Positions 31,789-36,244 of a DNA stretch of 64,000 nt are shown here, piece by piece (the stretch's first letter is position 1; every line of letters begins with the position of its first letter). Below the pieces are notes generated by a model. That model saw only the letters and a list, made by a program, of their open reading frames with translations. It had not been told where the DNA came from and ran no database searches. The position numbers and the translations under genes are program-made. This DNA comes from Thermotogota bacterium. GTDB lineage: Bacteria; Thermotogota; Thermotogae; Thermotogales; Thermotogaceae. Where the stretch lies: the NCBI GenBank assembly GCA_030550515.1, contig JAUQPE010000011.1, positions 194,915 through 258,914 of the forward strand. The letters are read 5' to 3'.

Positions 31789-32593
31789 TCTGAGGACACG
31801 GGTGATAACCGCTCTCATTGTAGCTCCGTTCGTGGTCTTGTGCTTTGTGAGTTACAAGAGTTTGGTGGGATTGGTGGCGGCGATCGTGTTGATAGCGGGT
31901 TTTGAACTCCTCTCCATGGAGCTGAAGAACAGGGACACGAAGTACTTTTACCTCCTTCTGGTCACTTTGTATCCGATCCTCGCAGGTTTCTTCTTTCAGG
32001 AAGATCCTTCTCTTCCCTTGGTTCTTCTCTTCATTGCAGGTGTCAGTTTTTCCCTACTCGTCGACAGAGATCCCGTTCTGACCCACAGAAGTGTGTTCGT
32101 GTTCCTCTTGACCCTCTTTTACGTTTCCTATTTCTTGAGCTTCTTTCTACCGATCTACAGGGTTTTTGGAATGGCCAACTCATTGCTCGTGCTGTCGGCC
32201 GTTTGGGCTTACGATTCCTTCGCCTATTTTGTGGGAATGAAATTTGGGAAGACGAGGATCTCTCCACATTACAGCCCCGGAAAGAGTTTGGAAGGACTCT
32301 TCGGGGGGTTGTGTGGGGTGTTACTCTACTCGTTGATCTACAAGGCGATCTTCCAGTACCTCTTCAGGACGACGGTGATCGGGTACAAAACCATCCTCCT
32401 CTTTTCCGCTTTGGTTGCGGTGATGGACACATTTGGCGACGTGTTCGAGTCGGCTTTGAAGAGGTACTACGGTGTGAAAGACTCCGGGAAGGCGTTACCC
32501 GGGCATGGAGGCATGCTCGATAGGATAGATGGTCTGCTGTTCGTGACCCCAACGAGTTACATTCTGTTCAAGTTCTTGGAGGGAGTGATGTGA
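31781..32593 (+). CDS. cdsA: Phosphatidate cytidylyltransferase
   Basis: The integral membrane enzyme of about 270 residues makes CDP-diacylglycerol from phosphatidate and CTP. It has about eight hydrophobic segments and the C-terminal CdsA signature (GVKDSGKALPGHGGMLDRID), with the catalytic aspartates. ATG at 31781 is 8 bases after GGAGG. Its stop overlaps the alaS start as TGATG. Confidence 0.93.
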   Translation: MDDLRTRVITALIVAPFVVLCFVSYKSLVGLVAAIVLIAGFELLSMELKNRDTKYFYLLLVTLYPILAGFFFQEDPSLPLVLLFIAGVSFSLLVDRDPVLTHRSVFVFLLTLFYVSYFLSFFLPIYRVFGMANSLLVLSAVWAYDSFAYFVGMKFGKTRISPHYSPGKSLEGLFGGLCGVLLYSLIYKAIFQYLFRTTVIGYKTILLFSALVAVMDTFGDVFESALKRYYGVKDSGKALPGHGGMLDRIDGLLFVTPTSYILFKFLEGVM

Positions 32594-35193
32594 TGAAATA
32601 CATGTCGTCAGAAGAATTGCGCGAGAGCTTTTTGAGGTTCTTCGAAAAGAAGGGACACAAGGTCCTTCCCAGCGCGTCTTTGATCCCTGACGACCCCCAG
32701 TTGATGTTCACCATCGCCGGTATGGTGCCTTTCAAACCTATATTTTGGGGAAAAGTGGAACCCGTCTACACGAGAATCGCGACCTGCCAGAAGTGTCTGA
32801 GAACCGTGGACATAGAGAACGTTGGCAAGACCCCAAGACACCACACGTTCTTCGAAATGTTGGGTAACTTCTCCTTCGGGGACTACTTCAAAGAGGAAGC
32901 GATAGAGTGGGCATGGGAGTTCGTGACGGAGGTACTGGGTGTGCCGGAAGAAAAGCTCTGGGTCTCCGTCTACGAGGAGGACGAGGAATCCTTCAGGATA
33001 TGGAACGAAAAGATAGGCCTGCCAGAGAGGAAGATCCTGCGTCTCGGGAAAGAGGACAACTTTTGGGGGCCGGCTGGTCCCACCGGTCCGTGCGGGCCTG
33101 ACTCAGAGATCTTCTACGACACAGGGTACTCTGCCGGATGTCCCCAAGGCGTGGAATGCACACCGGCCAATTCCGAAGGACGTTTTGTTGAGATATGGAA
33201 CTTGGTGTTCACCGAGTACTATCAGGACGAAGAAGGGAGGCTCCATCCGCTTCCCAGGAAGAACATAGACACGGGTGCGGGCCTTGAAAGGATGTGCGCC
33301 ATGCTCCAAGGGGTCTACAGCAACTTCGACACGGACCTCTTCAGGCCGATCATCGAGGCGATCCAAGACCTCACGGGTGTTTCCTATGGTTCAGACGAGA
33401 AAAAGGACGTGTCCATCAGGGTGATAGCGGATCACATCAGGGCGATCACCTTCTTGATGAGTGAGGGGGTGTTCCCGTCCAACGAGGGGAGGGGATACGT
33501 GCTCAGAAGGATCGTGAGGCGCGCCATGAGACATGGTGTGCTGCTCGGAGAGAACAAGCCTTTCTTGCACGGGTTGGTGGACGTGGTTGTCGAGAAGATG
33601 GGGAAGGTCTATCCCGAGATCGTCGAGAAGAGGGACACGGTCAGGGAAGTCCTTCAGGAAGAAGAAAGGAAATTCCTGAGGACTCTGGAGCAAGGCATCA
33701 GGATCTTCGAAGAGATAGTGGAGAAGAAAGGAAGGCTCGATTCGAAGGATGTTTTCAGGCTATACGACACCTACGGTTTCCCGGTGGAGATTACCGTGGA
33801 AATGGCCAGAGAGAGAGGGTTGGAAGTCGACACATCCAAGTTCAACGATTACATGGAAGAGCAGAGGAGAAAATCAAGGTTGGCGATGGGAGAAGTGGAA
33901 TTCGCCAAAAAGTACGAATACCTTGAGGAACTTCCACGGGATTTCAAGACAGTTTTCACCGGATACGAGAAGCTCTCGGACGTTGGTAAGGTCGTTTTGC
34001 TGGTGAAGAACGGAGAAGTGGTCCAGAAATTAGTCGAAGGCGAGGTGGGGGAAGTTGTCCTCACGCGCACGCCTTTCTATCCGGAGAAAGGGGGACAAGC
34101 CTCGGACACGGGTAGTATGATCACCCCGCGTGGAAGGGGAACGGTGGAGTACGTGTTCGAGCCGGTCGAAGGCGTGACAGTCCACAGGGTGAGGGTGACG
34201 GAAGGAGAGATCGCCGAGGAAGAGATGGCGGACCTTTTTGTGGACGAGAGAAAGAGACGCGCAACGATGAGAAACCACACGGCCACACACCTTCTCCACG
34301 CTGCGTTGAAGAGGGTACTGGGAGATCACGTCAGACAGGCAGGCTCTTTGGTCGCTCCAGACAGGTTGAGGTTCGACTTCACCCATCCCAAGGCCTTGAC
34401 CGACGAAGAGATCCGGCGGGTGGAGGACCTTGTGAACGAGTGGATCTTGAGCGATTTGCCCGTGGAGGTGTACTACACGAGTTACGAAGAAGCCATCAGG
34501 AAAGGTGTCGTGGCGTTGTTTGCGGAGAAATACGGTGACATCGTCAGGGTGGTGAGGGTGCCTGGTGTGAGCGAAGAGTTGTGCGGCGGAACGCACGTGA
34601 ACCGCACCGGGCAGATAGGCCTCTTCAAGATCGTCTCCGAAGAGGCTTCCTCTTCGGGTGTTCGAAGAATAGAGGCCGTGACTGGATTTGGAGCGTTGGA
34701 GTTGGCGAGGAAGAGAGAAGAAACCATCCTCGAGCTGAAGAAGTTGCTGGGTGTGGGAGAAGAAGGCATCCTGGAAAGGGTACAAGCCCTGAGGGAAAGG
34801 GTACGAGAGCTCGAAAGAAAAGTTTCGAGTGGGAACGTCGTCTCGGAAAAGGTGGTGTTGGAAAGTAGAAGAAACTTGGGCGGTGTGGACGTCTACACTG
34901 GGGTGTTCGACGACGTCGATCCGAAAACGTTGGGTGGGCTGGCTGACAGCGTGTTGGCCAGAGTGAAGAGTGGAATGGTTGTGCTCTTTGGACGAGGAAA
35001 AGAAAAAGTGAACGTGGTCGTCAAGGTGTCCGAGGATCTCCTTGAACGGTTCAACGCCGCTGAGATCGCCAAGAGGATCGCCGAGAGACTGGGGGGGAGT
35101 GGAGGAGGTAGTAAGAGCTTCGCGCAGGCGGGGGGGAAGAGCGTGGAAAAGGTGGGTGAGGTGCTAGAGCGCCTTGAAGATCTGTTGAGGTGA
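32593..35193 (+). CDS. alaS: Alanyl-tRNA synthetase
   Basis: The 866-residue class II synthetase charges tRNA-Ala. Motif 1 (FTIAGMVPFKPIFWG), motif 2 (TCQKCLRTVDIENVGKTPRHHTFFEMLGNFSFGDY) and motif 3 (GRGYVLRRIVRRAMRHG) are in order. The editing domain has the zinc-binding HTATHLLH and CGGTH motifs. The C-terminal oligomerisation region is present and ends with a Gly/Ser-rich linker and a helix. The start overlaps the cdsA stop. The length is standard. Confidence 0.97.
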   Translation: MKYMSSEELRESFLRFFEKKGHKVLPSASLIPDDPQLMFTIAGMVPFKPIFWGKVEPVYTRIATCQKCLRTVDIENVGKTPRHHTFFEMLGNFSFGDYFKEEAIEWAWEFVTEVLGVPEEKLWVSVYEEDEESFRIWNEKIGLPERKILRLGKEDNFWGPAGPTGPCGPDSEIFYDTGYSAGCPQGVECTPANSEGRFVEIWNLVFTEYYQDEEGRLHPLPRKNIDTGAGLERMCAMLQGVYSNFDTDLFRPIIEAIQDLTGVSYGSDEKKDVSIRVIADHIRAITFLMSEGVFPSNEGRGYVLRRIVRRAMRHGVLLGENKPFLHGLVDVVVEKMGKVYPEIVEKRDTVREVLQEEERKFLRTLEQGIRIFEEIVEKKGRLDSKDVFRLYDTYGFPVEITVEMARERGLEVDTSKFNDYMEEQRRKSRLAMGEVEFAKKYEYLEELPRDFKTVFTGYEKLSDVGKVVLLVKNGEVVQKLVEGEVGEVVLTRTPFYPEKGGQASDTGSMITPRGRGTVEYVFEPVEGVTVHRVRVTEGEIAEEEMADLFVDERKRRATMRNHTATHLLHAALKRVLGDHVRQAGSLVAPDRLRFDFTHPKALTDEEIRRVEDLVNEWILSDLPVEVYYTSYEEAIRKGVVALFAEKYGDIVRVVRVPGVSEELCGGTHVNRTGQIGLFKIVSEEASSSGVRRIEAVTGFGALELARKREETILELKKLLGVGEEGILERVQALRERVRELERKVSSGNVVSEKVVLESRRNLGGVDVYTGVFDDVDPKTLGGLADSVLARVKSGMVVLFGRGKEKVNVVVKVSEDLLERFNAAEIAKRIAERLGGSGGGSKSFAQAGGKSVEKVGEVLERLEDLLR

Positions 35194-35200
35194 AAAAGCG

Positions 35201-36244
35201 ATGGAAGTTTCTCTCAAGATCCAGGATTTGAAGAGGTGGCTTTCACTTTTCGACAAGATCACGGGAACTATCGAACCAGAAACAAGGCGGGTAGAGCTTT
35301 TCTACAAGAACGGTTTGTGGTTCAAGGCATCAGACAACTGTGCCGTTTTGAGGATCTTCGTTGGGGAGAGTCCACCTTTCGAGGGGGCACGCACAATTTC
35401 CCTCGATCTGTTGAAGGCCTTCACAAGCGACGTCAAAGGGGACGAGTTGAAACTTTCCATCCAGGAGAACCTCGTCGTGCTCAAAGCTGGGAACGAGTTG
35501 CTCTCCACCAAGACTTCCAGGATATCCGTCGAAGAGAGGGAGGAGGACGAAGAATACGTTTGCACGGTGGTCAAGAAAGATTTCGAAAATGCGTTGAACT
35601 TTGCGAGCTCCAACTTGGAAGAAGGAGCTTTCACAGGTATCATCTTCGAAGACGAAATGGTGACGATGTATGGGGCTTACGAGGAGATCCTCACCATCTC
35701 TTTCTTATCCACCAACCTCTCCAAGGCATTCGCGAAGAAAATCCCTTACGCGACGGCCCGTCACGTGTACAAGTTTTTGGAGAGGTTGAACGTTCAAACT
35801 ATCGATGTGTACACTAAAGGAGAACTTCTTTCTCTCAGGTACCCTTTCTTGGAACTCGACGTCTGTGGGGACTCGCTCGAGGAAACGGAGAGAGAACAAC
35901 TTAGCCGTTTGCTCCAGGAGAAACCTTTGGAGGTTCTTCACGCCAAAAAAGAGATCGTCAGCAGGTTGATCAGAAAAGCCGCTTATCTGGGAAAGAACAC
36001 GAAAGCAACGCTCGTTAGAGATGGTGAAACCATGAAGATCACGTTCAGAGGGCCCCACGTGCTGTACTCCGCGGAATTTTTCGTGAGGGCTGGAAAAGAC
36101 TTTCAGGTGATCTTCTCTCCAAAAAGGCTGAGAGGGGCTCTTTCCAGGATGACGGGGGAGAACCTCGTCTTTGAGCTCACCTCTTCTCACCTTCGCATCG
36201 CGAATCCATCAAAGACCCAGATGATTCTTCTTAAGATCGATTAG
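35201..36244 (+). CDS. Divergent DnaN-like sliding-clamp protein (hypothetical)
   Basis: This 347-residue protein would be called hypothetical by simple matching. I read three tandem repeats of about 110 residues (about 1-112, 118-222, 240-347). Each ends in the same pattern of a helix then two strands: LLKAFTSDVKGDELKLSIQE (from residue 70), VYKFLERLNVQTIDVYTKGE (from 189) and LRGALSRMTGENLVFELTSS (from 320). The last also parallels the C-terminus of bacterial beta clamps, including a final hydrophobic strand (QMILLKI). Size and threefold design match DnaN. It follows alaS by 7 bases and overlaps hslO by 36 bases. Being a second clamp is an inference; it may bind DNA, polymerase or neither. 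Confidence 0.6.
   Translation: MEVSLKIQDLKRWLSLFDKITGTIEPETRRVELFYKNGLWFKASDNCAVLRIFVGESPPFEGARTISLDLLKAFTSDVKGDELKLSIQENLVVLKAGNELLSTKTSRISVEEREEDEEYVCTVVKKDFENALNFASSNLEEGAFTGIIFEDEMVTMYGAYEEILTISFLSTNLSKAFAKKIPYATARHVYKFLERLNVQTIDVYTKGELLSLRYPFLELDVCGDSLEETEREQLSRLLQEKPLEVLHAKKEIVSRLIRKAAYLGKNTKATLVRDGETMKITFRGPHVLYSAEFFVRAGKDFQVIFSPKRLRGALSRMTGENLVFELTSSHLRIANPSKTQMILLKID

What the first reader, a model, noticed from the sequence alone, without database searches (positions are those of the whole stretch)
35201..36244. A second, divergent sliding-clamp (DnaN-like) protein encoded after alaS
The 347-residue product shows three internal repeats of the same length and pattern, ending at about residues 112, 222 and 347. 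Bacterial beta clamps are threefold with domains of this size, and their last strand ends similarly. The normal dnaN should lie elsewhere in the genome, so this would be a paralogue of unknown purpose, perhaps for a repair polymerase, Okazaki processing at high temperature, or a nuclease. I know of no described function for it. The cysteines and clamp-binding pocket cannot be judged by eye.
Basis: inference. Interest (0 to 1): 0.75.

Follow-up and report, generated by a model that had tools for sequence, protein, structure and literature searches.

The report
Divergent second sliding clamp in Thermotogota
Besides the normal ring-shaped clamp that holds DNA polymerase on DNA, nearly all sequenced Thermotogota bacteria carry a second, unannotated protein with the same fold that has lost the usual partner-binding and loading parts, and in some families its gene sits right behind that of the main DNA polymerase.

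Summary
The 347-aa ORF at 35201-36244 is a three-domain beta-clamp-fold protein, distinct from the genome's one canonical dnaN. The family profile's top 11 PDB hits are all beta clamps (best T. maritima DnaN, 2.6e-6). The AlphaFold model (pLDDT 88, pTM 0.85) matches clamps over full length at TM about 0.8. The family was found in 98 of 103 Thermotogota genomes, is inherited vertically under strong purifying selection (dN/dS mostly 0.04-0.1), and was not found in 287 genomes of other phyla. Pfam and NCBIfam give the window protein no meaningful match. It is not simply a second DnaN. The peptide-binding pocket, the loop-I arginine and loop-II motif that touch DNA and loader, and the interface salt bridges are lost. 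A new near-invariant signature appears: G22, E25, C47, E141, R187-H-x-x-K191, C222, R316. The helices equivalent to the clamp pore lining are more basic than in DnaN (+9.0 versus +2.3). In 30 genomes of two families the gene directly follows polC. Best mechanism (inferred): a loader-independent, DNA-binding clamp-like accessory of the PolC replisome, working like UL42/UL44 but related to DnaN. A clamp for a repair polymerase is less likely.

The parts
35201..36244 (+). gene of the divergent clamp-fold protein (347 aa plus stop)
   Evidence: ORF; profile and fold match to beta clamps; phylum-wide homologues
35187..35193 (+). GAGGTGA, likely ribosome-binding site overlapping the alaS stop codon (TGA 35191-35193)
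   Evidence: sequence read directly
35201..35536 (+). domain I (residues 1-112)
   Evidence: AlphaFold secondary structure; alignment with DnaN
35537..35866 (+). domain II (residues 113-222)
35867..36241 (+). domain III (residues 223-347)
35264..35287 (+). G22-x-x-E25-P26-x-x-R29: loop-I equivalent; two residues shorter than DnaN, with the loop-I Arg/Lys (E. coli R24) deleted in every member
35333..35341 (+). D45-N46-C47 (family consensus DGC)
   Evidence: D 97%, C 96% of 80 members
35621..35626 (+). E141-G142: loop-II equivalent; DnaN's R-x-L-N-G motif lost
   Evidence: E 97%, G 85%
35744..35773 (+). P182-Y-x-x-x-R187-H188-x-x-K191 on helix 2 of domain II (equivalent to a pore-lining helix)
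   Evidence: R187 and K191 invariant in 80 members
35864..35866 (+). C222, present or lost together with C47
   Evidence: 77 C/C, 3 with both lost, none with one only
36146..36148 (+). R316 on helix 2 of domain III
   Evidence: 93% of members
32590..35193 (+). alaS, upstream neighbour in this genome and in the seven nearest relatives held

Best explanation
The gene encodes a beta-clamp paralogue that was already in the common ancestor of Thermotogota and was inherited vertically (shown by comparative sequence and fold evidence). It kept the three-domain clamp body, and the helices equivalent to the DNA-facing pore are more basic than in DnaN, but it lost the pocket by which DnaN holds its partners, the loader/DNA-contact loops, and the dimer salt bridges (shown by alignment). 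Inferred: it binds duplex or primer-template DNA directly through its basic inner face, as a half ring or a ring closed by a different interface, without needing the clamp loader. It serves the PolC replisome as an accessory, contacting its partner through a new conserved site at the junction of domains I and II (G22/E25/R29, D45/C47, E141, R187/H188/K191, C222) instead of the classical II-III pocket. C47 and C222 probably lie close together and tie the two domains, as a thiol pair, disulfide or metal site. The polC gene linkage is shown; the physical partnership is not.
For: Profile homology: the top 11 of all PDB sequences are beta clamps; global profile alignment with phylum DnaN gives 98.4% probability over 346 columns; a phage processivity-factor family hits the window protein alone at 1.1e-4. 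Fold: pLDDT 88, pTM 0.85, TM about 0.8 to clamps. Family: 98/103 genomes, usually single copy; vertical tree; purifying selection. Loss of pocket, loops and salt bridges: residues strongly conserved in the DnaN set are replaced. Basic helices: +9.0 versus +2.3 in DnaN, rest of protein -3.0 versus -20.6. PolC link: directly downstream of polC in all 16 evaluable f9 genomes and 14 of 21 f10 genomes, with gaps of -11 to +11 nt in the 16 loci measured. C47/C222 coupling. Precedent for loader-free clamps, high in positive charge and bound to their polymerase, in herpesviruses: PMC9690074, PMC10506467.
Against: No biochemistry exists. PolC keeps a canonical C-terminal QxxLF motif in every case looked at, so it can use normal DnaN and does not obviously need this protein. 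The polC link holds only in two families; elsewhere the neighbours are alaS, ddl, tsaD, ychF and others. The basic-helix argument rests on helix boundaries from a model and on sequence, not on an electrostatic map. Domain I keeps hydrophobic residues at the canonical interface (L101, residue 103), so a loadable closed ring is not excluded. The C47/C222 double loss is in one family only and may be a single event.
Confidence: 0.42

Rival explanations
1. A true second sliding clamp: a closed homodimeric ring put on DNA by the DnaX clamp loader and serving a specialised polymerase or nuclease, with partner binding moved to a new site.
For: Full three-domain clamp fold; basic inner helices; L101 (87%) and a hydrophobic residue 103 in most members at the canonical domain I interface position.
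Against: Loop-I Arg/Lys deleted and loop-II motif gone across the 80 members; acidic interface residues (E. coli 298, 301, 304) lost. These loops help loading in E. coli, and D150 and R152 there are essential (PMC5042465). Y-family polymerases are absent or depleted in this phylum (PMC12926913).
Confidence: 0.22
2. A heterodimer partner of DnaN: one protomer of DnaN and one of this protein form a mixed ring with only one functional pocket.
For: Hydrophobic domain I interface position retained while the charged interface partners changed; nearly always present together with a canonical DnaN.
Against: No direct evidence of binding to DnaN; the protein evolves much faster than DnaN (47% versus 79% identity to the same relative).
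Confidence: 0.13
3. A non-DNA clamp-like regulator: a decoy or scaffold that binds PolC, DnaN or the clamp loader and controls clamp use, without encircling DNA.
For: Loss of the partner pocket and the loader-contact loops; conserved residues concentrate in domains I and II.
Against: Inner helices are basic in all 80 members (minimum +3, mean +9), with R187 and K191 invariant, which suggests nucleic-acid binding.
Confidence: 0.13
4. A protein with a clamp fold but a role outside replication (for example RNA or translation), given neighbours such as alaS and tsaD.
For: Neighbours in most families are not replication genes.
Against: These neighbours differ from family to family, whereas polC is kept across two families with near-zero spacing; all detectable relatives are replication clamps.
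Confidence: 0.1

Closest known systems
Canonical bacterial beta clamp DnaN (PF00712/PF02767/PF02768), e.g. T. maritima DnaN, PDB 1VPK
   Same: Three-domain fold, full-length co-linear alignment, conserved Asp of the A-T-D motif in domain I, basic pore-equivalent helices
   Different: About 14% identity; pocket (D173, G174, R176, L177, F241, P242, Y244, P363, R365), loop-I Arg/Lys, loop-II R-x-L-N-G and interface acids lost; own signature gained; net charge far less acidic
DnaN-2 of Bacillus species (reviewed in PMC3290774)
   Same: A second dnaN paralogue beside the normal gene
   Different: DnaN-2 shares about 40% with DnaN-1 and can participate in replication; this protein is about 14% identical, phylum-wide and lacks the clamp pocket
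Herpesvirus processivity factors UL42 (monomer) and UL44 (C-shaped dimer)
   Same: Proposed working principle: clamp-like fold rich in positive charge, direct DNA binding without a loader, tied to its polymerase (PMC9690074, PMC10506467)
   Different: Two-domain PCNA-type proteins of viruses, not members of this family; comparison is of mechanism only
Eukaryotic 9-1-1 checkpoint clamp
   Same: Clamp-fold paralogues beside the main clamp
   Different: Heterotrimer of PCNA-type subunits; no relationship beyond the fold; recalled, not tested here

Membership tests
Beta sliding clamp (DnaN) fold superfamily | Three clamp domains, full-length fold match | tested here: met
   AlphaFold pLDDT 88, pTM 0.85, three repeated units; Foldseek TM about 0.8 over about 370 columns
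Beta sliding clamp (DnaN) fold superfamily | Significant sequence-profile homology to DnaN | tested here: met
   Top 11 PDB hits are beta clamps, best 2.6e-6; hhalign probability 98.4%; phylum DnaN genes hit by the profile down to 3.7e-17
Canonical DnaN (processivity clamp) | Pfam DNA_pol3_beta domains recognised | tested here: not met
   Window protein: no Pfam hit; only 9, 5 and 2 of 69 members hit PF00712, PF02768 and PF02767 at E up to 1, best 1.1e-5
Canonical DnaN (processivity clamp) | Hydrophobic pocket for QxxLF clamp-binding motifs between domains II and III | tested here: not met
   Pocket residues D173, G174, R176, L177, F241, P242, Y244, P363, R365 (92-100% in the DnaN set) are replaced in most members; P242 position is a gap in 95%
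Canonical DnaN (processivity clamp) | Loop I and loop II DNA/loader contacts | tested here: not met
   Loop-I Arg/Lys deleted in all members; loop-II motif replaced by E-G; role of these loops from PMC5042465
Canonical DnaN (processivity clamp) | Head-to-tail dimer forming a closed ring | not testable with these tools
   Only single chains can be folded here; sequence signs are mixed: hydrophobic positions kept in domain I, salt-bridge residues lost
Canonical DnaN (processivity clamp) | Basic DNA-facing inner helices | tested here: met
   Mean net charge of six helices +9.0, versus +2.3 in DnaN; helix borders from the model
Bacillus-type DnaN-2 | High similarity (about 40%) to the resident DnaN | tested here: not met
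   About 14% identity in the profile alignment with phylum DnaN
UL42/UL44-like loader-free processivity factors (mechanism only) | Loader-independent DNA binding and association with a cognate polymerase | not testable with these tools
   Only indirect: basic inner helices and polC adjacency

The most novel reading that the evidence does not exclude
Thermotogota replisomes contain a second, ancestral clamp-fold subunit that binds DNA without a clamp loader and partners PolC through a new domain I-II site, the first cellular bacterial counterpart in mechanism of the loader-free viral processivity factors.
Probability: 0.25. Interest if true: 0.88.

Novelty: new variant of a known kind. Interest (0 to 1): 0.7.

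Why it matters
A core, vertically inherited replication-type protein of a whole bacterial phylum appears to have gone unannotated because it is too divergent for Pfam and NCBIfam. If it works with PolC it would add a subunit to a bacterial replisome and show that a beta clamp can be turned into a protein that no longer needs the pocket, loops or salt bridges thought to define it. Thermotoga is a source of thermostable replication enzymes, so the protein should be easy to make and test.

Tried and rejected
Pseudogene or spurious ORF: rejected (dN/dS about 0.04-0.1 in most pairs, family-wide open frames). The canonical dnaN of this genome: rejected, dnaN is at C8. Recent duplication or lateral transfer from outside the phylum: not supported, the gene tree follows the families and no relative other than apparent canonical DnaN was found among 287 genomes of other phyla; the three strongest outside hits were checked and are canonical DnaN. 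Phage origin: no relative in viral contigs with the pattern used. First genome-contig scan with the single protein found nothing; an alignment query found 8 loci. Alignment of all 69 members was too diverse for that search. For the fold prediction I used only the window protein and relatives fetched by the search for related loci, as the tool rules require, hence 8 sequences. No literature on this protein was found. Two genomes of genus g2 and two of g17 seem to lack it, but these assemblies are fragmented.

Full report
OBSERVATION. The ORF at 35201-36244 (+) encodes 347 aa and starts 7 nt after the alaS stop, with GAGGTGA overlapping that stop. By itself it has no Pfam hit, only a meaningless NCBIfam hit far below that family's cut-off, and no significant PDB hit. 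The genome (1.61 Mb, 29 contigs; Thermotogota, since its closest relatives held include T. maritima-like genomes and named Thermotogales loci) has one ordinary dnaN at C8 (E 2.7e-32).

FAMILY. A whole-genome search found relatives in 92 of 103 genomes of the phylum. A profile of 69 members (A1) raised this to 98 of 103 and added fast-evolving members in G089, G097, G098, G099 and G001 (sequences). Only G087, G088, G065, G003 and G004 gave none, most of them fragmented assemblies. In 287 genomes of other phyla only weak matches appeared; the three strongest were read and are canonical DnaN, scoring 161-220 bits with a DnaN profile against about 40 with the family profile. The gene tree separates every family cleanly, apart from the fast-evolving members of f1, as expected for vertical descent. 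dN/dS is 0.04-0.1 for most close pairs, with one weakly informative pair at 0.23.

HOMOLOGY AND FOLD. The A1 profile against all PDB sequences gives 11 beta clamps as the top 11 hits, best T. maritima DnaN 1VPK at 2.6e-6 over profile positions 1-329. A profile built without DnaN finds the genome's own DnaN at 2.2e-7 in a small set, and DnaN genes of the phylum at up to 3.7e-17 as second hits. Global profile alignment with DnaN of the phylum: 98.4% probability, 346 columns, 14% identity. A phage processivity-factor family hits the window protein alone at 1.1e-4. Foldseek matches full-length clamps with TM about 0.8, and phage clamps similarly.

WHAT IS LOST. A joint alignment with E. coli and phylum DnaN shows: loop I is two residues shorter and lacks the Arg/Lys at E. 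coli R24 in all members; the loop-II motif is gone; the pocket residues D173, G174, R176, L177, F241, P242, Y244, N320, P363, R365 (92-100% conserved in the DnaN set used) are replaced in most or all members; the interface acids at 298, 301 and 304 are lost, while L101 keeps a hydrophobic residue at the F106 position. In E. [quoted passage not shown]

WHAT IS GAINED. Near-invariant positions not shared with DnaN: G22, E25, C47, E141, G142, R187, H188, K191, C222, R316, plus R29 (81%); D45 is shared with DnaN. Even the most diverged members keep G22, E/D25, D45, C47, E141, R187, K191 and C222. C47 and C222 are both present in 77 of 80 members and both absent in 3 (all of family f11), never one alone. 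The six helices equivalent to the pore lining carry +9.0 on average (minimum +3), against +2.3 in DnaN, and the rest of the protein is -3.0 against -20.6. R187 and K191 are one turn apart, at positions matching E. coli 201 and 205, so on the same helix face as K198; inferred to face DNA.

GENE NEIGHBOURHOOD. In the window genome and the seven nearest relatives held: alaS, then this gene, then hslO in reverse. Elsewhere: ddl (f2), tsaD (part of f3), ychF plus a small ORF (f8), thymidylate kinase plus a small ORF (the f10 genus that includes Marinitoga). In all 16 evaluable genomes of f9 (Kosmotogaceae and relatives, named loci) and 14 of 21 of f10 it lies immediately downstream of polC on the same strand (PolC identity by TIGR01405 and Pfam domains), with gaps of -11 to +11 nt in the 16 loci measured. 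Every PolC looked at ends in a QxxLF-type motif (QFTLF in this genome), so PolC can still use canonical DnaN.

MECHANISM. The fold, the basic inner helices, the invariant Arg/Lys and the polC link point to a DNA-bound replication accessory. Loss of the pocket and loops argues against an ordinary loader-dependent tool-belt clamp. Viral clamps UL42 and UL44 are high in positive charge, bind DNA without a loader and stay attached to their polymerase (PMC9690074, PMC10506467); I propose the same principle here, with a DnaN-derived body. This is inference. Rivals: a true second ring, a heterodimer with DnaN, a non-DNA regulator, or a role outside replication.

NOVELTY. No paper in the library searched describes it, and Pfam and NCBIfam have no model that recognises the window protein; I could not check NCBI protein annotations. 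The known Bacillus DnaN-2 is a much closer copy of DnaN (PMC3290774). I rate it a new variant of a known kind.

Noticed in passing
L026:2459-3043 (G059): A second, partial copy (C-terminal part, 195 aa) of the clamp-like gene sits just downstream of the full copy in one genome.
   Followed up: no
G084:C23:20505-21578; G011:C55:30357-31463; G037:C1:1818027-1819064: Extra copies of canonical DnaN in a few genomes (34%, 29% and 33% identity to the window genome's DnaN), the last with stop codons inside.
   Followed up: no
G039-G045 (genus g32, includes Marinitoga), dnaN loci: DnaN matches in two pieces within longer frames (406-432 aa where intact), as if there were an insertion in domain I; the same genus lacks the polC linkage of the clamp-like gene.
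   Followed up: no
window 36209-36244: The 3' end of the clamp-like gene overlaps the convergent hslO gene by 36 bp.
   Followed up: no
L110, L111, L112, L113 (G089, G097-G099): In two genera of the same family the clamp-like protein is very fast-evolving (about 323-330 aa, H188 changed to R) and sits between what look like a cell-wall peptidase-like gene and a methyltransferase-like gene (judged by eye), not next to alaS.
   Followed up: partly
L109 / L125 (Marinitoga lauensis; G041): The clamp-like gene is broken by a frameshift in this assembly, either a sequencing error or a real loss.
   Followed up: no
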